Below, piece after piece: positions 8,869 to 61,897 of a stretch of DNA of 64,000 nt; position 1 is the stretch's first letter; every line of letters begins with the position of its first letter. Source of the stretch: Micromonospora ureilytica. GTDB lineage: Bacteria; Actinomycetota; Actinomycetes; Mycobacteriales; Micromonosporaceae. Made by a program: the position numbers and the translations under genes. The notes below the pieces were generated by a model, which was not told the DNA's origin, ran no database searches, and was given only the letters and a program-made list of their open reading frames with translations. The stretch spans positions 2,604,001-2,668,000 of the forward strand of contig NZ_JADOTX010000001.1 of the NCBI RefSeq assembly GCF_015751765.1, read 5' to 3'.

Positions 8869-9606
8869 TCAACCCACGTCGCCGCGGCCGCGCAGGTAGT
8901 CGTGCAGGGCGGCGCTGCCCCGCAGTCGACGCAGGCTACGGGTGTGCAGCTCCTGCTCGCGGCGGCCCAGTTCGGCGCGGACCCGCTGAGCACTGCCGGT
9001 GGTCCGCAGTTCGCCCAGCACCGCCGCGATGATCTCGAACGGGTACGCGCCTCGGCGCAGCAACGCGATGACCTGCGCCGCGCGTAGCTCCGCCTCGTCG
9101 TACACCCGGTAGTTGGTGCCCGGGGTGCGGCCCGGCCGCAGCAGCTCGCGCTCCTCCCACAGACGCAGCTGCGAGGTCCGGACCCCGACCAGGGCGGCGA
9201 CCTCGCCGATGCGGGCGCCGTGGCGTGGCGCGGGCCGGGCCGCCGGTGGACCGGCCAGCACGGTCTCGAACGCGCCGAGCACCCGGCGGATCTCGGCGCG
9301 CTCCCGGTCCAGCTCGGCGTGGCCGCCGTCGAGCGCCGCCAGGGCCGCCGGCAGGTCACCCCCGTGCACCGCCGCCATGATCTCCCGGGTACGGCTCCAG
9401 CCGTGCCCCTCGGCCAACCGCCGCGCCACGGTCAGCGCCCGTGCGTGCTCCGTGGTGAAGATCCGGTAACCGCTCGCGGTGCGGCGCACCGGCGGCAGCA
9501 CCCCCAACTCGACGTAGTTGCGCACCTGCTGCACCGAGATCCCGACGGTGGCCGCCAGGTCCACGGCGCGCAGTCGATCCTTCGAGGCGACGTCCACGCG
9601 AGCCAC
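8869..9606 (-). CDS. MerR-family regulator with two tandem HTH domains
   Basis: 245 residues, GTG start at 9606 close to the divergent promoter region. Two MerR-type winged HTH modules are visible: residues ~12-80 (AVDLAATVGISVQQVRNYVELGVLPP) and ~130-200 (IGEVAALVGVRTSQLRLWEERELLRP). No metal-binding cysteine cluster, so it is a drug-sensing or ligandless type rather than CueR-like. It is divergent from, and probably controls, the UvrA-like gene. Two-HTH MerR proteins paired with UvrA paralogues occur widely in actinomycetes (known pattern; control of this gene is inferred). Confidence 0.9.
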   Translation of the reverse strand: MARVDVASKDRLRAVDLAATVGISVQQVRNYVELGVLPPVRRTASGYRIFTTEHARALTVARRLAEGHGWSRTREIMAAVHGGDLPAALAALDGGHAELDRERAEIRRVLGAFETVLAGPPAARPAPRHGARIGEVAALVGVRTSQLRLWEERELLRPGRTPGTNYRVYDEAELRAAQVIALLRRGAYPFEIIAAVLGELRTTGSAQRVRAELGRREQELHTRSLRRLRGSAALHDYLRGRGDVG

Positions 9607-9764
9607 CGTACCGCTTACGACGTGATTTGAGACTTTACGGGGCGTAGTGCCTTCGTGTGCGCTTGCCGTTCACCAGAAGTATCTACATGAGGATGAATGA
9701 GACAATGGAACCCGCCAGTGCCCGGCGGGGCCAAAGTCCCGCCACAATTCCGTGAAGGGTTCGC
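9607..9764. promoter_or_regulatory. Divergent control region of the MerR / UvrA-like pair
   Basis: 158 bp, more AT-rich than its surroundings. An inverted repeat TACG-GGG-CGTA lies at 9636-9646, just inside the region from the MerR start; this is a plausible MerR operator. A GAAGGG ribosome binding site lies 5 nt before the UvrA-like ATG. I could not assign -35/-10 boxes with confidence. Confidence 0.45.
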
Positions 9765-12059
<2,295 letters not shown>

Positions 12060-57091: not shown

Positions 57092-57273
57092 CACCGGGCG
57101 CGGGCACGCTCCAGCGCCCGGCCGACCGCTCCGCCCGGGGCGCCGGTCCGGAGGGCTGACTGAACGCCGATCTTGGCTAGGCTGATGGGCATGCCCGCAC
57201 ACCATCCGCACCGCCACCACGACGGCCGGAGGTGGGCCCCCGCCGCCGTGCGCCCGATCGAGCCGGCCGGCTG

Positions 57274-58221
57274 GTGAGTGACGCACCCGTGCCCGCCCCG
57301 CGGGGTGGGCCGTCCACACCACCGCGGCACCGCTCGGGTTGGACCGACCGTTGCGACCGACTCGCCCGGTCCCGCCCCTTCGAGATCGCCATCGTCGTGG
57401 TCATCCTCGCCAACGGCATCGTTCTCGGCCTGGAGACGTACGACGACCTGAGCCCGGCGGGCACCGCGCTGCACGGGCTGGAGCTGTTCTTCCGGGCCGT
57501 CTTCGTCGTGGAGATCGCCGTCCGGCTGGCCGCCTACGGCAGGCGCCCACAGGACTTCTTCCGACACGGCTGGAACGTCTTCGACTTCGTGGTGATCGCG
57601 GCGATCTTCATTCCGGGCCTGCACGGCGACCCGGCGCTGCTGCGGGTCGTGCGGGTCGCCCGGATGGTTCGCCTGGTGCGGTTCTCGCCGGGTCTGCGGA
57701 CCATCGTCTCCGCGCTGTGGCGCAGTCTGCCGGGCGTCACCGGGTTCCTCGCTCTGGCCGTGGTGACGCTCTACGTGTACGGCATGGCCGGCTGGCTGAT
57801 CTTCGGCAACAGGTATCCGGAGGAGTACGGCGACATCGGCCGATCGCTGCTGACGTTGTTCGTGCTGTTGTCGCTGGAGACGCTGCCGGACCTCATCGAG
57901 CAGGGCATGGCGATCTCGCCGTGGACGCTGCTCTACTACGTCAGCTACGTGGTCATCACCGTCAACCTGCTGCTCAACATCCTCATCGCGGTCATCGTGA
58001 ACTCCATGGAGGAGGCCCGCCGGTTGGAGATGACCGAGCGACTGGCCCCCGGGTACGACGAGGACGGCGACGGCGTACCGGACGAGGTGGACCGCATCGC
58101 GCTCACCCAACGGCTGGACGACCTGCGGGCGGTCATCACCGAGCTGGAACGGGAGCTGCGCATCGACCGGGACGACGGGCACGGCCGCCCCCTCCGGGAC
58201 AACGCCCGCGTCAGACGGTAA
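57274..58221 (+). CDS. Voltage-gated ion channel (NaChBac-like) with EF-hand-like C terminus
   Basis: 315 residues from GTG 57274 (start uncertain). Six helices: S1 IAIVVVILANGIVLGL, S2, S3, S4 with Arg at every third position (LLRVVRVARMVRLVRF), S5, a pore loop LFVLLSLETLPDLIEQG and S6 VITVNLLLNILIAVIVNSME. The filter resembles the NaChBac TLESW type (here SLETL), so Na+ or mixed cation selectivity is likely. The C terminus has a DEDGDGVPDEVD loop like an EF hand or Ca-binding repeat and a coiled coil for tetramer assembly. Confidence 0.9.
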   Translation: MSDAPVPAPRGGPSTPPRHRSGWTDRCDRLARSRPFEIAIVVVILANGIVLGLETYDDLSPAGTALHGLELFFRAVFVVEIAVRLAAYGRRPQDFFRHGWNVFDFVVIAAIFIPGLHGDPALLRVVRVARMVRLVRFSPGLRTIVSALWRSLPGVTGFLALAVVTLYVYGMAGWLIFGNRYPEEYGDIGRSLLTLFVLLSLETLPDLIEQGMAISPWTLLYYVSYVVITVNLLLNILIAVIVNSMEEARRLEMTERLAPGYDEDGDGVPDEVDRIALTQRLDDLRAVITELERELRIDRDDGHGRPLRDNARVRR

Positions 58222-58297: not shown

Positions 58298-59467
58298 GTG
58301 ACGACACGTGTCGACAATGCCCAGACCGCCACCGATCCCACGGACACGCTCGGCACGGTGATCGACGACGTGATCCGCCCGAGGGCGCCGATCGTCGACC
58401 GGGACGGGGCCTTCCCCCGTCCGGGTGTCGACGCTCTCGCCGCGGCCGGCCTGCTCGGCCTGGCCTCCTCGACCGAGGTCGGTGGCGGCGGCCACGGCAT
58501 GCGGGCGGTCGCCGAGGTCATCGAGCGGTTGGCCGCCGAGTGCGGGTCCACCGCGATGGTGGTTCTCATGCACTACGCGGCGACCGCCGTCATCGAGGCG
58601 CACGGCCCGCGCGACGTCCGCGCGGCCATCGCCGCCGGCGATCACCTCACCACCCTGGCGTTCTCCGAGTACGGCTCGCGCAGCCACTTCTGGTCGCCGA
58701 CCGGCACCGCGACTGCCGCCGACGACGAAACGGTCCGCCTCGACGCCCGTAAGAGCTGGGTCACCTCGGCCGGCGAGGCCAACAGTTACGTCTGGTCGAG
58801 CCTTCCGCTGACCCCCGATGTCGGCCCGATGACGCTGTGGCTCGTGCCGGCCGACAGCGCCGGACTGAGCGTGACCGGAGACTTCGACGGGCTGGGCCTG
58901 CGCGGCAACGGCTCTCGCCCGATGACCGCCGACGGGCTCCGGGTTCCGTCGACGGCGCGGATGGCGGCCGACGGGGCCGGGCTCGACGCCGCGCTCGGCG
59001 CGGTCCTACCCTGGTTCCTGGTGCTCAACGCCGCCTTCTGCCTCGGTCTCGCCGACAGCGCGGTGGCCGAGGCCAGCCGACATCTCACCAGGACCACGCT
59101 CACGCACACCGGCGCCGCCCTGCGCGACTCGCCCGTCACCCGACGCGACCTGGCCCGGCTGATGATCCGCACCGACGCGCTGCGCACCTTCCTGGGCGAC
59201 ACGCTCACCGCGCTGGAGACCGGCCGCGCCGACGCGATGCTGCGGGTGCTGCAGGTCAAGGCGCTCGCCGGCGGGACCGTCGCCGACGTGACCGATGGCG
59301 CGATGCAGCTCTGCGGCGGCAGCGCCTTCCGCAAGGAGTTGGGCCTCGATCGTCGTTTCCGGGACGCACGCGCGGCGCGGGTGATGGCACCGACCACCGA
59401 CGCGCTGCACGATTTCGTCGGCCGTGTCGCCACCGGGCTGCCGCTGTTCGACGAGGCCAACCGCTGA
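58298..59467 (+). CDS. Acyl-CoA-dehydrogenase-fold flavoprotein lacking the EGTxQ Glu
   Basis: 389 residues, GTG 58298 behind GAAGAGG. N-terminal helical domain (AAGLLGLASSTEVGGGGHGM), beta domain (FSEYGSRSHFWSPT, SWVTSAGEANSYVWSS) and C-terminal helices (MQLCGGSAFRKELGLDRRFR). Where acyl-CoA dehydrogenases have YEGTxQ, this protein has VMAPTTDALHDF, so the catalytic Glu appears replaced. This is seen in DszC/monooxygenase-like and other non-dehydrogenase branches. First gene of a coupled three-gene operon. Confidence 0.88.
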   Translation: MTTRVDNAQTATDPTDTLGTVIDDVIRPRAPIVDRDGAFPRPGVDALAAAGLLGLASSTEVGGGGHGMRAVAEVIERLAAECGSTAMVVLMHYAATAVIEAHGPRDVRAAIAAGDHLTTLAFSEYGSRSHFWSPTGTATAADDETVRLDARKSWVTSAGEANSYVWSSLPLTPDVGPMTLWLVPADSAGLSVTGDFDGLGLRGNGSRPMTADGLRVPSTARMAADGAGLDAALGAVLPWFLVLNAAFCLGLADSAVAEASRHLTRTTLTHTGAALRDSPVTRRDLARLMIRTDALRTFLGDTLTALETGRADAMLRVLQVKALAGGTVADVTDGAMQLCGGSAFRKELGLDRRFRDARAARVMAPTTDALHDFVGRVATGLPLFDEANR

Positions 59468-60312
59468 TGCCCGCGCCAACCGTTCTGCTGGGCGCGGTCG
59501 CGTACGACCCGAAGGTGGTGACCATCTGGGAGGGCTTCCGCGCCTGGCTGCGCGGGCGGGGCCTGGACTTCGACTTCGTCCTGTACTCGCACTACGAACG
59601 ACAGGTCGAGGATCTCGTCGCCGGGCGGATCGACGCGGCCTGGAACTCTCCCCTGGCCTGGCTACGGGCCGAGCGTTTGGCGGCCGCCAACGGCACGGCC
59701 GTCCGCGCGCTCACCATGCGCGACACCGACCAGGACCTCACCTCGGTCGTGGTGGTTCGCGCGGACTCGCCGGTACGCCAGATCGCCGACCTCACCGGAC
59801 GGGTGGTCGCCGTCGGGGCGATCGACAGTCCACAGGCGACGCTGATTCCGCTGGGCCACCTCGCGGCTGCCGGGGCCGCTGTCGACGTACGCCGCTTCGA
59901 CGTGGGTGTCGGCCTGCACGGCGACCACATCGGCGGCGAGCGCGACGCGGCCCGCGCCCTGGCGGCCGGGGAGGTCGACGCCGCCTGCATGATCGACGCC
60001 AACCATCTGGCGTTCGTTCAGGAGGGCACGTTGCCGCCCGAGGGCACCCGGATCGTGGCGCAGACCGCGCGCTACGACCACTGCAACATGACGGTCCGCG
60101 CGCCGGAGTCGGACGGCGTCCGCCTCTTCGGCACGCTGCTGCTCGGCATGTCGTACGCCGATCCGCAGGTGCGTCCGCTGCTCGATCTGGAGGGGCTGAC
60201 AGCCTGGCGCGAGGGTCGCACCTCGGGGTATGGCGCTCTGGCCGAGGCGGTCGACGCCAGCGGCTTCTACTCCCCCGACGGGCGGGTGACGGCCACGGAC
60301 TACCGGCCGTGA
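59467..60312 (+). CDS. PhnD-like binding-fold protein without export signal
   Basis: 281 residues. ATG shares a base with the previous stop (TGATG). Phosphonate/phosphite-binding (PhnD-like, type-II PBP) fold: AYDPKVVTIWEGFRAWLRGR, YERQVEDLVAGRIDAAWNSP, SPQATLIPLGHLAAAGAAVD, AGEVDAACMIDANHLA. It begins directly with the first strand and has no signal peptide or lipobox, so it should stay in the cytoplasm, as PBP-fold enzymes such as MqnA/MqnD do. No ABC permease or ATPase gene follows. Confidence 0.88.
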   Translation: MPAPTVLLGAVAYDPKVVTIWEGFRAWLRGRGLDFDFVLYSHYERQVEDLVAGRIDAAWNSPLAWLRAERLAAANGTAVRALTMRDTDQDLTSVVVVRADSPVRQIADLTGRVVAVGAIDSPQATLIPLGHLAAAGAAVDVRRFDVGVGLHGDHIGGERDAARALAAGEVDAACMIDANHLAFVQEGTLPPEGTRIVAQTARYDHCNMTVRAPESDGVRLFGTLLLGMSYADPQVRPLLDLEGLTAWREGRTSGYGALAEAVDASGFYSPDGRVTATDYRP

Positions 60313-61520
60313 CCGCGGCGCCGGTCGCCGAGGTCGACCTCGGTGACCTGGGTTTCGGCCGGGGTGCGCACCTACTCGTGCAACGCGCCCTGGCCGGGCT
60401 GCCGCCCGGCGGCCGGTTGGCGGTCTCCGGCCGCGACCCGGCGCTGCGCGTACACCTTCCTGCCTGGTGTCGTCGGCGGGGTCATCGGGTCGAATGGCCG
60501 GATCGAGGCGAGGCGAGCGACCTCGTCGCGGTGGTGGTCCGGGGGTCGGCGGACGACGACCGCTGGTTCGGCGCGGAGCGGGCCGGGCCGGCTCTGCCGT
60601 CGGCGCTCAGCAGCCGTCCGCCGGCGCGGTGGGGGCTCGGCGCCCGGGGCGCGCTCCTCGAAGCCGGTGGTCCCGAAGCCCGGTTCGACCTGGACGAGCG
60701 CGACCTGGTCTGGGCCGACATCGCCCCCCACCTGTACGCGCAGGCGGCCGCGCGACAGTGGGACCCGCAGACCGCGGTGCCGTGGGACGACAAGTTCGCG
60801 CTGCCGGCCGACGTCGAGGCCGCGGTGGTACAGGTGATGACCTACCTGGTCGAGAACGAGCAGGCCGCCCTCGTCGTACCGGCCCGGTTCGTGGGGCGCA
60901 TCCATCCCCACTTTCGGGAGGTGGTGCAGCTCCTCGCCGTACAGATGGCCGACGAGGCGCGGCACATGGAGGTCTTCAGCCGGCGGGCGCTGCTGCGGGG
61001 CGCCGAGATGGGAACGTCATCCGCCGGCGGCCGGCAGTCGCTGTTCACGCTCGTCGCTGAGTCGGACTTCGCATTGGCGTCGTTCCTGCTCTCCGTGCTC
61101 GGCGAGGGCAGCTTCGTCGATCTGCTCTCGTTTCTGCACGAGTTCGCCCCGGACCCGGTGACGCGGCGGATCTGTTGGCTCGCCATGCAGGACGAGCGCA
61201 GGCACGTGGTGTTCGGCATGGCACACCTGGAGCATCAGGCGCAGCTGGATCCGCTGCTGCGGGACCGACTGCGGGCCGCCATCCACCGCCGCCACGACGC
61301 GCTCGTCGACACCGCAGGACTCAACGCGGACGTCTTCGACGCGCTGGTGGTGCTCGCGGCGGGTGGTTGGCATCCGAACGACGTGTCCGCCGGCTACGAC
61401 CGGGTGCAGGCTCTGCAACACGCCATGGATCAGGGCCGTCAGCGCCGACTCGTCCGCCTGGGATTCCGCCCCGACGAGGCGGCGGCGCTCTCCGCCCTGC
61501 ACACCCGCAACTTCATGTAG
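60309..61520 (+). CDS. TusA-like domain fused to a di-iron ferritin-like domain
   Basis: 403 residues; GTG 60309 overlaps the previous stop (GTGA). Residues ~8-70 resemble a TusA/SirA-type sulfur-carrier fold (VDLGDLGFGRGAHLLVQRAL, LPPGGRLAVSGRDPALRVHL). After a linker, residues ~150-340 form a ferritin-like four-helix bundle with candidate di-iron ligands Glu182/184, Glu216 and His219 (DEARHMEVF), Glu266 (GEGSFVDLL), Glu296 and His299 (DERRHVVFG). A non-haem oxidase/oxygenase is likely; with the TusA part, a sulfur-containing substrate is possible. Confidence 0.88.
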   Translation: MTAAPVAEVDLGDLGFGRGAHLLVQRALAGLPPGGRLAVSGRDPALRVHLPAWCRRRGHRVEWPDRGEASDLVAVVVRGSADDDRWFGAERAGPALPSALSSRPPARWGLGARGALLEAGGPEARFDLDERDLVWADIAPHLYAQAAARQWDPQTAVPWDDKFALPADVEAAVVQVMTYLVENEQAALVVPARFVGRIHPHFREVVQLLAVQMADEARHMEVFSRRALLRGAEMGTSSAGGRQSLFTLVAESDFALASFLLSVLGEGSFVDLLSFLHEFAPDPVTRRICWLAMQDERRHVVFGMAHLEHQAQLDPLLRDRLRAAIHRRHDALVDTAGLNADVFDALVVLAAGGWHPNDVSAGYDRVQALQHAMDQGRQRRLVRLGFRPDEAAALSALHTRNFM

Positions 61521-61543
61521 GCGAGCAGTAAAGTAGAGCGGAC

Positions 61544-61897
61544 ATGACCAGCGACTCCAACGCGGTCCGCGAGGAACTGCTGCGGCTGCGCGAGCAGACC
61601 GAGGCTCAGGCCACCGCCCTGGAGGGCGACCTGCGGAGCCTCTTCGAGGCGTCCCGGTCGTCCAACGCCGATGACGAACACGACCCCGAGGGCAGCACGA
61701 TCGCCTTCGAACGCGCACAGCTCAGCGCCGTGCTGGACGCCGCCCGCCGACGCCTGGCCGAGCTGGACGTCGCGCTGCGACGGGTCGACGACGGCAGCTA
61801 CGGCGTGTGCGAACGGTGCCTGCTCCCCATTCCCGCCGAGCGGCTCGTCGCCCGCCCGTCAGCACGCACGTGTGTCGCCTGTGCCAGCCGACGGTGA
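61544..61897 (+). CDS. DksA/TraR-type zinc-finger protein
   Basis: 117 residues, 23 nt after the TusA/di-iron stop and so likely in the same transcript. A coiled-coil N-terminal half (EELLRLREQTEAQATALEGD) and a four-Cys zinc finger (YGVCERCLLPIPAERL, TCVACASRR). Similar proteins bind RNA polymerase through the secondary channel or act as small regulators. May be a stand-alone gene. Confidence 0.92.
   Translation: MTSDSNAVREELLRLREQTEAQATALEGDLRSLFEASRSSNADDEHDPEGSTIAFERAQLSAVLDAARRRLAELDVALRRVDDGSYGVCERCLLPIPAERLVARPSARTCVACASRR

What the first reader, a model, noticed from the sequence alone, without database searches (positions are those of the whole stretch)
58298..61897. Undescribed coupled operon: Glu-less ACAD-fold protein, cytoplasmic PhnD-like protein, TusA/di-iron fusion, DksA-like protein
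Seen: three genes linked by TGATG and GTGA overlaps, then a DksA/TraR gene 23 nt on. The ACAD-fold protein has MAPTTDALHDF where the EGTxQ Glu motif belongs. The PhnD-like protein has no signal peptide and no transporter genes. The third joins a TusA-like module to a ferritin-like bundle with an E...ExxH...E...ExxH pattern. Known: ACAD-fold monooxygenases exist (DszC), PBP-fold proteins can be enzymes (MqnA/D), TusA carries sulfur. Inferred: a cytoplasmic oxidative pathway for a small, possibly sulfur- or phosphorus-containing molecule.
Basis: partly seen in the sequence, partly recalled or inferred. Interest (0 to 1): 0.85.

Follow-up and report, generated by a model that had tools for sequence, protein, structure and literature searches.

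The report
Oxidative gene trio with swappable enzyme
Three overlapping genes in a soil actinobacterium form a conserved but uncharacterised enzyme set, whose third enzyme has been exchanged more than once between an oxygen-using iron enzyme and an unrelated radical enzyme, and whose radical-type relatives sometimes sit among genes like those that make a sulfur-containing sugar in tuberculosis-type bacteria.

Summary
In detail: an ACAD-fold gene (g1), a cytoplasmic PhnD-like gene (g2) and a TusA-like/di-iron fusion (g3) overlap at 58298-61520. g1 and g2 are distant relatives of M. tuberculosis Rv1679 (FadE16) and Rv1680. In 62 g2-bearing genomes whose surroundings were read, g1 is adjacent in 59; the third gene is the g3 type in 48, an Rv1681-type radical SAM enzyme in 11, MetE-like in 1, none in 2; never g3 type and radical type side by side. 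The g2 tree needs at least two exchanges. Both catalysts carry the same TusA-like domain. It lacks the sulfur-carrying Cys, so a sulfur relay is unlikely. The ACAD Glu is absent in 13 of 13 g1 rows. DksA is not part of the unit. In 4 of 14 genomes without g3 in cis the cassette lies within 10 kb of genes like those for methylthioxylose; 0 of 48 with g3. Best reading: a cytoplasmic redox tailoring module, perhaps for a phosphorylated (methylthio)pentose. Anatomy is shown; substrate and chemistry are inferred.

The parts
58298..59467 (+). g1: acyl-CoA-dehydrogenase-fold flavoprotein, Rv1679/FadE16 relative without the catalytic Glu
   Evidence: Pfam PF00441/PF02771/PF02770 over cut-off; NF049984 1.4e-110, 370 bits, below its cut-off of 600; A5 alignment
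59381..59395 (+). VMAPT (residues 362-366) in place of the Glu-bearing ACAD motif
   Evidence: V, M, A, P, T each 13 of 13 rows
59465..59469 (+). TGATG: stop of g1 overlaps start of g2 by one base
   Evidence: sequence; same 1-nt overlap estimated in 27 of 30 Micromonospora genomes
59467..60312 (+). g2: cytoplasmic PhnD/PtxB-like binding-protein fold, Rv1680 relative
   Evidence: PF12974 6.7e-27; NF049985 1.8e-62, 211 bits, below its cut-off of 400; model pLDDT 96.2; Foldseek PhnD/PtxB
60079..60084 (+). His205-Cys206 of g2
   Evidence: 14 of 14 rows; not present in the PtxB/PhnD chains aligned
60309..61520 (+). g3: TusA-like domain joined to a ferritin-like di-iron domain
60333..60542 (+). TusA-like domain of g3 (about residues 9-78), without the catalytic Cys
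   Evidence: profile match to 1dcj/3lvj E 2e-4; Cys counts; shared with the Rv1681-type enzyme
60717..61508 (+). di-iron four-helix domain of g3 (about residues 137-400)
   Evidence: E184, E216, H219, E266, E296, H299 35 of 35 rows; fold matches

Best explanation
The three genes form one cytoplasmic redox tailoring module: the Rv1679-Rv1680 core plus an exchangeable radical/oxygen enzyme. SHOWN by sequence: a conserved unit; a Glu-less ACAD fold; a PhnD-like fold without export signal and with an altered pocket; a complete di-iron ligand set; at least two exchanges of the di-iron enzyme with a radical SAM enzyme; a shared TusA-like domain without the catalytic Cys. INFERRED: g2 is not a transport protein but binds, and perhaps with His205/Cys206 acts on, a small phosphorylated substrate. 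The g3 di-iron site (using O2), or the 4Fe-4S/SAM site of its counterpart, performs the same hard oxidation or rearrangement. The TusA-like domain docks the enzyme to g2 or to the substrate and carries no sulfur. g1 does a base-free flavin redox step, of the DszC/DnmZ class rather than a dehydrogenation. The pathway is most likely an optional modification of the MTA-derived 5-methylthiopentose (MTX-type) sugar, or a close relative, in the cytoplasm.
For: g1 adjacent to g2 in 59 of 62 genomes; third gene di-iron 48, radical SAM 11, both side by side 0 of 62. At least two exchanges on the g2 tree of 41 rows. Same TusA-like domain on both catalysts, hhalign 91-93%, three crossed controls under 1%. 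VMAPT 13 of 13, di-iron ligands 35 of 35, His205-Cys206 14 of 14. In genomes without g3 in cis: DoxD/Rv1678-like membrane protein beside the cassette in 12 of 14 (0 of 48 with g3), TIGR04282 within 10 kb of g2 in 4 of 14 (0 of 48), binomial P about 4e-7 or 1e-5 with a generous rate, chosen after seeing the data. G199 and G800 have MTAP, epimerase, GT2 and TIGR04282 around g1-g2-rSAM. MtxS = Rv0539 and MtxT = Rv0541c (PMC8780516, passages); the sulfoxide MSX exists in LAM (PMC8531672, passages).
Against: No di-iron cassette, the window included, is linked to the MTX-type genes (0 of 48); in the window genome two such clusters lie 1.4 and 1.8 Mb away. The TIGR04282 gene occurs also in all 6 g2-negative genomes searched, one weakly, so the pathway does not need the cassette. 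Three g2-g3 genomes lack g1 beside g2, and no g1 counterpart was found elsewhere in two of them, one of these 74% complete. G100 has g3 and, elsewhere, a related radical enzyme without the TusA-like domain; G042 and G451 have such an enzyme elsewhere too. A radical SAM enzyme cannot simply insert O2-derived oxygen, so the shared reaction is not plain sulfoxidation.
Confidence: 0.33

Rival explanations
1. N-oxygenation module: g1 is an ACAD-fold flavin N-hydroxylase, as in sugar nitroso synthases such as DnmZ, and g3 a VlmB/AurF-like N-oxygenase; together they oxidise an amine, perhaps an amino sugar, to a nitroso, nitro or azoxy group.
Confidence: 0.15
2. Organosulfur use: g1 (SfnB/DszC-like), g2 (SsuA/PhnD-like) and g3 take apart a small sulfur compound to supply sulfur.
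For: SfnB, sulfinopropanoyl-CoA desulfinase and DszC models match g1; one Streptomyces-like genome has a cysteine desulfurase gene after g3; a DoxD-like protein beside radical-type cassettes; a MetE-like third gene in one genome.
Against: The TusA-like domain has no catalytic Cys; no transporter was seen beside g2 in the window; g1 matches Rv1679/FadE16 far better than SfnB (370 against 83 bits); linkage to sugar-transfer genes in 4 of 14 genomes.
Confidence: 0.15
3. The reader's pathway with sulfur relayed by the TusA part of g3.
For: TusA-like fold match.
Against: No Cys before position 54 in 34 of 35 rows; in the other one it stands at position 14. The CPxP place is recalled from E. coli TusA.
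Confidence: 0.04
4. Ordinary parts: g1 a plain acyl-CoA dehydrogenase and g2 a phosphonate-transport component that happen to be neighbours.
For: A structure-based annotation paper lists Rv1680 as a putative phosphonate transporter component (PMC8562490, one passage); family names in Pfam.
Against: No signal peptide, altered pocket loop and conserved linkage in 59 of 62 genomes; no catalytic Glu in g1.
Confidence: 0.03

Closest known systems
M. tuberculosis Rv1678-Rv1679-Rv1680-Rv1681 as named in NCBIfam (NF049986, NF049984, NF049985, NF049973)
   Same: g1 and g2 are homologous to Rv1679 and Rv1680; the third proteins share the TusA-like domain; same unit in 8 genomes of a mycobacterium-like genus.
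   Different: g1 and g2 score below the curated cut-offs (370 of 600, 211 of 400). The third enzyme is a di-iron protein, not radical SAM, and no Rv1678-like gene was seen beside it.
PhnD/PtxB/HtxB/AioX binding proteins
   Same: Fold (Foldseek TM 0.6-0.7); aligned Tyr and, against PtxB, His of the pocket.
   Different: No export signal; the Ser-Thr-Ser loop is Asp-Ser-x-Gln/His; invariant His-Cys.
VlmB/AurF, aldehyde-deformylating oxygenase and R2-like oxidases
   Same: Four-helix di-iron fold and ExxH ligand pairs.
   Different: Joined to a TusA-like domain; sequence match very weak (R2lox 2.8e-5, VlmB homologue 0.0016).
TusA
   Same: Weak sequence match over residues 9-78 (E 2e-4).
   Different: Catalytic Cys absent.
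DszC/DnmZ-type Glu-less ACAD-fold enzymes
   Same: ACAD fold without the catalytic Glu; Glu-lessness of DszC and DnmZ is recalled.
   Different: Closest by sequence to Rv1679/FadE16; no flavin reductase was seen beside it.
Methylthioxylose (MtxS/MtxT) pathway
   Same: MTAP, epimerase, TIGR04282 and GT2 genes sit with some radical-type cassettes, and such clusters occur elsewhere in the window genome.
   Different: The cassette is not part of the described pathway, and TIGR04282 genes occur without it.

Membership tests
Acyl-CoA dehydrogenase (as an enzyme) | ACAD fold domains | tested here: met
   Pfam N, M and C domains over cut-off
Acyl-CoA dehydrogenase (as an enzyme) | catalytic Glu at the EGT place or on helix G | tested here: not met
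   VMAPT 13 of 13; position 238 Pro 13 of 13, 239 Trp/Tyr/Thr/Val; site assignment recalled
NCBIfam equivalogs Rv1679_FadE16 / SBP_like_Rv1680 | score over the curated cut-off | tested here: not met
   370.1 of 600 and 211.4 of 400: relatives, not equivalogs
Phosphonate-type periplasmic binding protein | fold | tested here: met
   PF12974 and Foldseek
Phosphonate-type periplasmic binding protein | export signal and neighbouring ABC transporter genes | tested here: not met
   first strand at residues 5-11; no such ORF seen beside g2. No signal-peptide program was available.
Phosphonate-type periplasmic binding protein | Ser-Thr-Ser oxyanion loop | tested here: not met
   Asp-Ser-x-Gln/His, D120 and S121 14 of 14
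TusA sulfurtransferase | catalytic Cys of CPxP | tested here: not met
   no Cys at reference positions 1-53 in 34 of 35 rows, one row with Cys at 14
TusA sulfurtransferase | fold | tested here: inconclusive
   Pfam below cut-off (25.1 of 28.6); 1dcj/3lvj E 2e-4
AurF/VlmB/ADO-like di-iron oxygenase | four-helix fold with two ExxH pairs and two further Glu | tested here: met
AurF/VlmB/ADO-like di-iron oxygenase | bound iron and O2 chemistry | not testable with these tools
   needs purified protein
Methylthioxylose pathway | cassette linked in cis to MTAP/epimerase/GT2/TIGR04282 genes | tested here: inconclusive
   4 of 14 genomes without g3 in cis, 0 of 48 with it, the window included

The most novel reading that the evidence does not exclude
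An O2-dependent di-iron enzyme and an oxygen-independent radical SAM enzyme, each joined to the same TusA-like docking domain that no longer carries sulfur, are interchangeable catalysts for one unknown step that a repurposed binding protein presents to them, in the making of an altered methylthio-sugar (the enzymatic origin of methylsulfoxy-xylose, or a new relative of it).
Probability: 0.15. Interest if true: 0.85.

Novelty: new variant of a known kind. Interest (0 to 1): 0.62.

Why it matters
If right, it gives a function to a cassette kept by tuberculosis-type bacteria (Rv1678-Rv1681) that is annotated only as a fatty-acid enzyme, a phosphonate binder and a radical SAM protein, and it offers a harmless actinobacterium in which to study it. 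It would also be a clear case of an oxygen-using enzyme and a radical SAM enzyme replacing each other more than once behind one conserved docking domain, and of a binding-protein fold turned into an enzyme or substrate presenter.

Tried and rejected
DksA as a member: rejected. TusA as sulfur relay: rejected. Arsenic sugars, suggested by the NCBIfam names TIGR04282/TIGR04283: dropped as a label when, in the mycobacterium-like genome G150, the same genes lay in an order that I recall as Rv0541c to Rv0533c, with an MTA phosphorylase over its cut-off. TIGR04282 as a genome-wide marker: useless, 23 of 25 genomes have it (the two without it are g2-positive) and so do all 6 g2-negative ones, one weakly. 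Viral contigs searched with g2: none. Promoter scan: 0 sites; 2 terminator-like sites against 1.1 expected. Strict exclusion of the two enzyme types genome-wide: not claimed, because G100 has a TusA-less Rv1681-like enzyme elsewhere; whether the window genome has one was not tested. Neighbours shared by the f41 and f45 genomes (protease, MreB, LysR regulator, helicase) gave no hint. In the second structure look a family missing from the rows is not excluded. Literature (held library only): searches found no paper, one unrelated, searches listed 14, 3 and 7 papers, of which passages of PMC5625393, PMC8562490, PMC6393673 and PMC5017210 were read and the rest seen as listings only. One search (arsenosugar with radical SAM) listed 4 papers, none holding the word arsenosugar. 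led to passages of PMC8780516, PMC8081860, PMC10675199, PMC8531672 and PMC10503756. The original MTX paper is not held, so MtxS/MtxT rest on a figure legend in PMC8780516.
Full report
OBSERVATION. The window genome (G000, 7,096,270 bases) is a Micromonospora by its nearest named relatives: g2 is 95-96% identical to named Micromonospora proteins. g1 is an ACAD-fold protein, g2 a Phosphonate-bd (PF12974) protein, g3 has sub-threshold TusA and AurF matches, and a DksA/TraR gene follows 23 nt on.

WHAT THE PROTEINS ARE. NCBIfam places g1 with Rv1679/FadE16 (1.4e-110, 370 bits, cut-off 600) and g2 with Rv1680 (1.8e-62, 211 bits, cut-off 400). So this is a distant counterpart of the M. tuberculosis pair. 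The gene after g2 in the mycobacterium-like genome G150 is an Rv1681-family radical SAM protein (537.6 bits, cut-off 380), and the gene before g1 an Rv1678-family membrane protein (74.4 bits, cut-off 50).

g1. In 13 aligned relatives, radical-type and MetE-type genomes included, the Glu-bearing ACAD motif is VMAPT in all 13; the helix-G place is Pro followed by Trp, Tyr, Thr or Val; Met91-His92 is invariant. An ordinary dehydrogenase mechanism is unlikely. Glu-less ACAD folds include DszC, DnmZ and a desulfinase (recalled; DszC and DnmZ appear among the matches, the desulfinase), so 'oxygenase' is an inference.

g2. The model (pLDDT 96.2) matches PhnD, PtxB, HtxB, AioX and ArrX. It starts with its first strand, with no export signal. 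Against PtxB the pocket Tyr and His align with conserved residues, but the Ser-Thr-Ser loop is Asp120-Ser121-x-Gln/His and His205-Cys206 is an addition (D120, S121, H151, H205, C206 14 of 14 rows). The pocket looks repurposed.

CO-OCCURRENCE. g2 was sought in 396 genomes of the phylum (15 matches at E 1e-25, one weak), 121 of the genus (26), 78 of the mycobacterium-like genus (9), 298 of the order (21 at E 1e-40) and 24 of another class (6); the sets overlap. With G388 and G284, found through g3, and without the weak G552, this gives 62 genomes, all with surroundings read (some stretches only 4-6 kb). g1 is beside g2 in 59. The third gene in cis is the TusA/di-iron type in 48 (one cut by a contig end, one in two pieces), the Rv1681 type in 11 (one a fragment at a contig start), MetE-like in 1, none in 2. 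None of 62 has the di-iron and radical types side by side. In two the di-iron gene precedes g1. In three di-iron genomes g1 is not beside g2: no counterpart was found elsewhere in G842 and G770 (the latter 74% complete), and in G745 only a 217-bit match, the level of paralogues in other genomes. The cassette is patchy: 26 of 121 Micromonospora; full-length g3 in 3 of 197 genomes of the class. Distant trios include a Planctomycetes MAG (L020).

THE EXCHANGE. On a tree of 41 g2 proteins (39 of the 62 genomes, L017, L020) the labels di-iron and radical SAM need two changes, and well-supported branches force two: the mycobacterium-like/G199/G800 clade among di-iron lineages, and G525 in a group next to the Micromonospora clade. 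The second rests on a C-terminal fragment of the G525 enzyme. In the mycobacterium-like genus 8 of 9 cassettes are radical type and one (G709) di-iron type. The N-terminal region of the Rv1681 type matches the TusA-like domain of g3 by profile comparison (91.1 and 92.8%, pairwise E 1e-6 and 4e-7); three crossed-domain controls give under 1%. One domain is thus joined to two unrelated catalysts. Of 20 g2 genomes searched whole, 7 have full g3, 9 the full TusA-rSAM, none both. Counter-evidence: in G042, G451 and G100 a related radical enzyme without this domain lies elsewhere, and G100 also has g3.

PATHWAY CLUES. Of the 14 genomes without g3 in cis, 12 have a DoxD/Rv1678-like membrane protein beside the cassette (0 of 48 with g3), and four (G199, G800, G227, G042) have a TIGR04282 gene within 10 kb of g2, with a GT2 gene (a short piece in G042). 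G199 and G800 also have the epimerase and an MTAP-like gene; that of G800 is over the NCBIfam cut-off (314 of 306). G227 has a weaker MTAP-like gene (129 of 275 bits) and no epimerase was found there. In G150 the set stands about 19 kb from g2 in the order membrane protein, TIGR04282, GT2, two others, epimerase, MTAP, then genes that look like MenA and FabH; I recall this as the order of Rv0541c to Rv0533c. MtxS = Rv0539 and MtxT = Rv0541c make and transfer methylthioxylose (PMC8780516, passages); its sulfoxide MSX is reported in LAM (PMC8531672, passages). Four of 14 such linkages have a binomial chance of about 4e-7, or 1e-5 at a generous rate; the test was chosen after seeing the data. Against: 0 of 48 di-iron cassettes show it; the window genome has two such clusters 1.4 and 1.8 Mb away; TIGR04282 genes occur in all 6 g2-negative genomes searched.

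MECHANISM. Most likely the module is cytoplasmic: g2 holds a small phosphorylated substrate; g3, or the radical enzyme, docked through the TusA-like domain, oxidises or rearranges it; g1 does a base-free flavin redox step. Only the anatomy is shown; substrate and reactions are inferred.

NOVELTY. The families have names but no function. Searches for Rv1678-Rv1681, FadE16, MoeX and the fusion found no description of the cassette in what was seen, only biomarker, proteomic and annotation mentions; four papers were seen as passages, the others as listings. The exchange and the shared Cys-less domain appear to be new.

Noticed in passing
L191 (G000:C1:844000-863000) and L192 (G000:C1:1240500-1259500): The window genome has two clusters with MTAP-like, epimerase, GT2, TIGR04282 and MtxT-like membrane-protein matches, far from the cassette.
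   Followed up: partly
L021 about 9494-10250; L019 about 10001-10408: Two Micromonospora records hold only fragments of g1 and g3, or of g3 alone, with no g2 found: remnants of the cassette.
   Followed up: no
L165:1883-3709: A 608-aa protein whose C-terminal half is Rv1681-like radical SAM and whose first ~335 residues look like a phosphoesterase (that part not tested), beside a TIGR04283 gene over its cut-off.
   Followed up: no
L079:10259-11470 (L166:15258-16469): A MetE-like protein is the third gene overlapping g2 in G227; another radical SAM gene lies upstream in the same stretch.
   Followed up: partly
L081:10628-11830: A NifS-like cysteine desulfurase gene follows g3 closely in the Streptomyces-like genome G388.
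   Followed up: no
L173:1382-2680: TIGR04282-like and GT2 domains are fused in one 432-aa protein in G800.
   Followed up: no
window 57232-58221: An ion-channel gene (PF00520) lies upstream of g1 in 24 of the 30 Micromonospora genomes read (one a partial match), but was not seen beside the cassette in the other genomes.
   Followed up: partly
L147 (G709): One genome of the mycobacterium-like genus carries the di-iron version, grouped on the g2 tree with two Micromonospora rows and G284, which suggests transfer between genera.
   Followed up: partly
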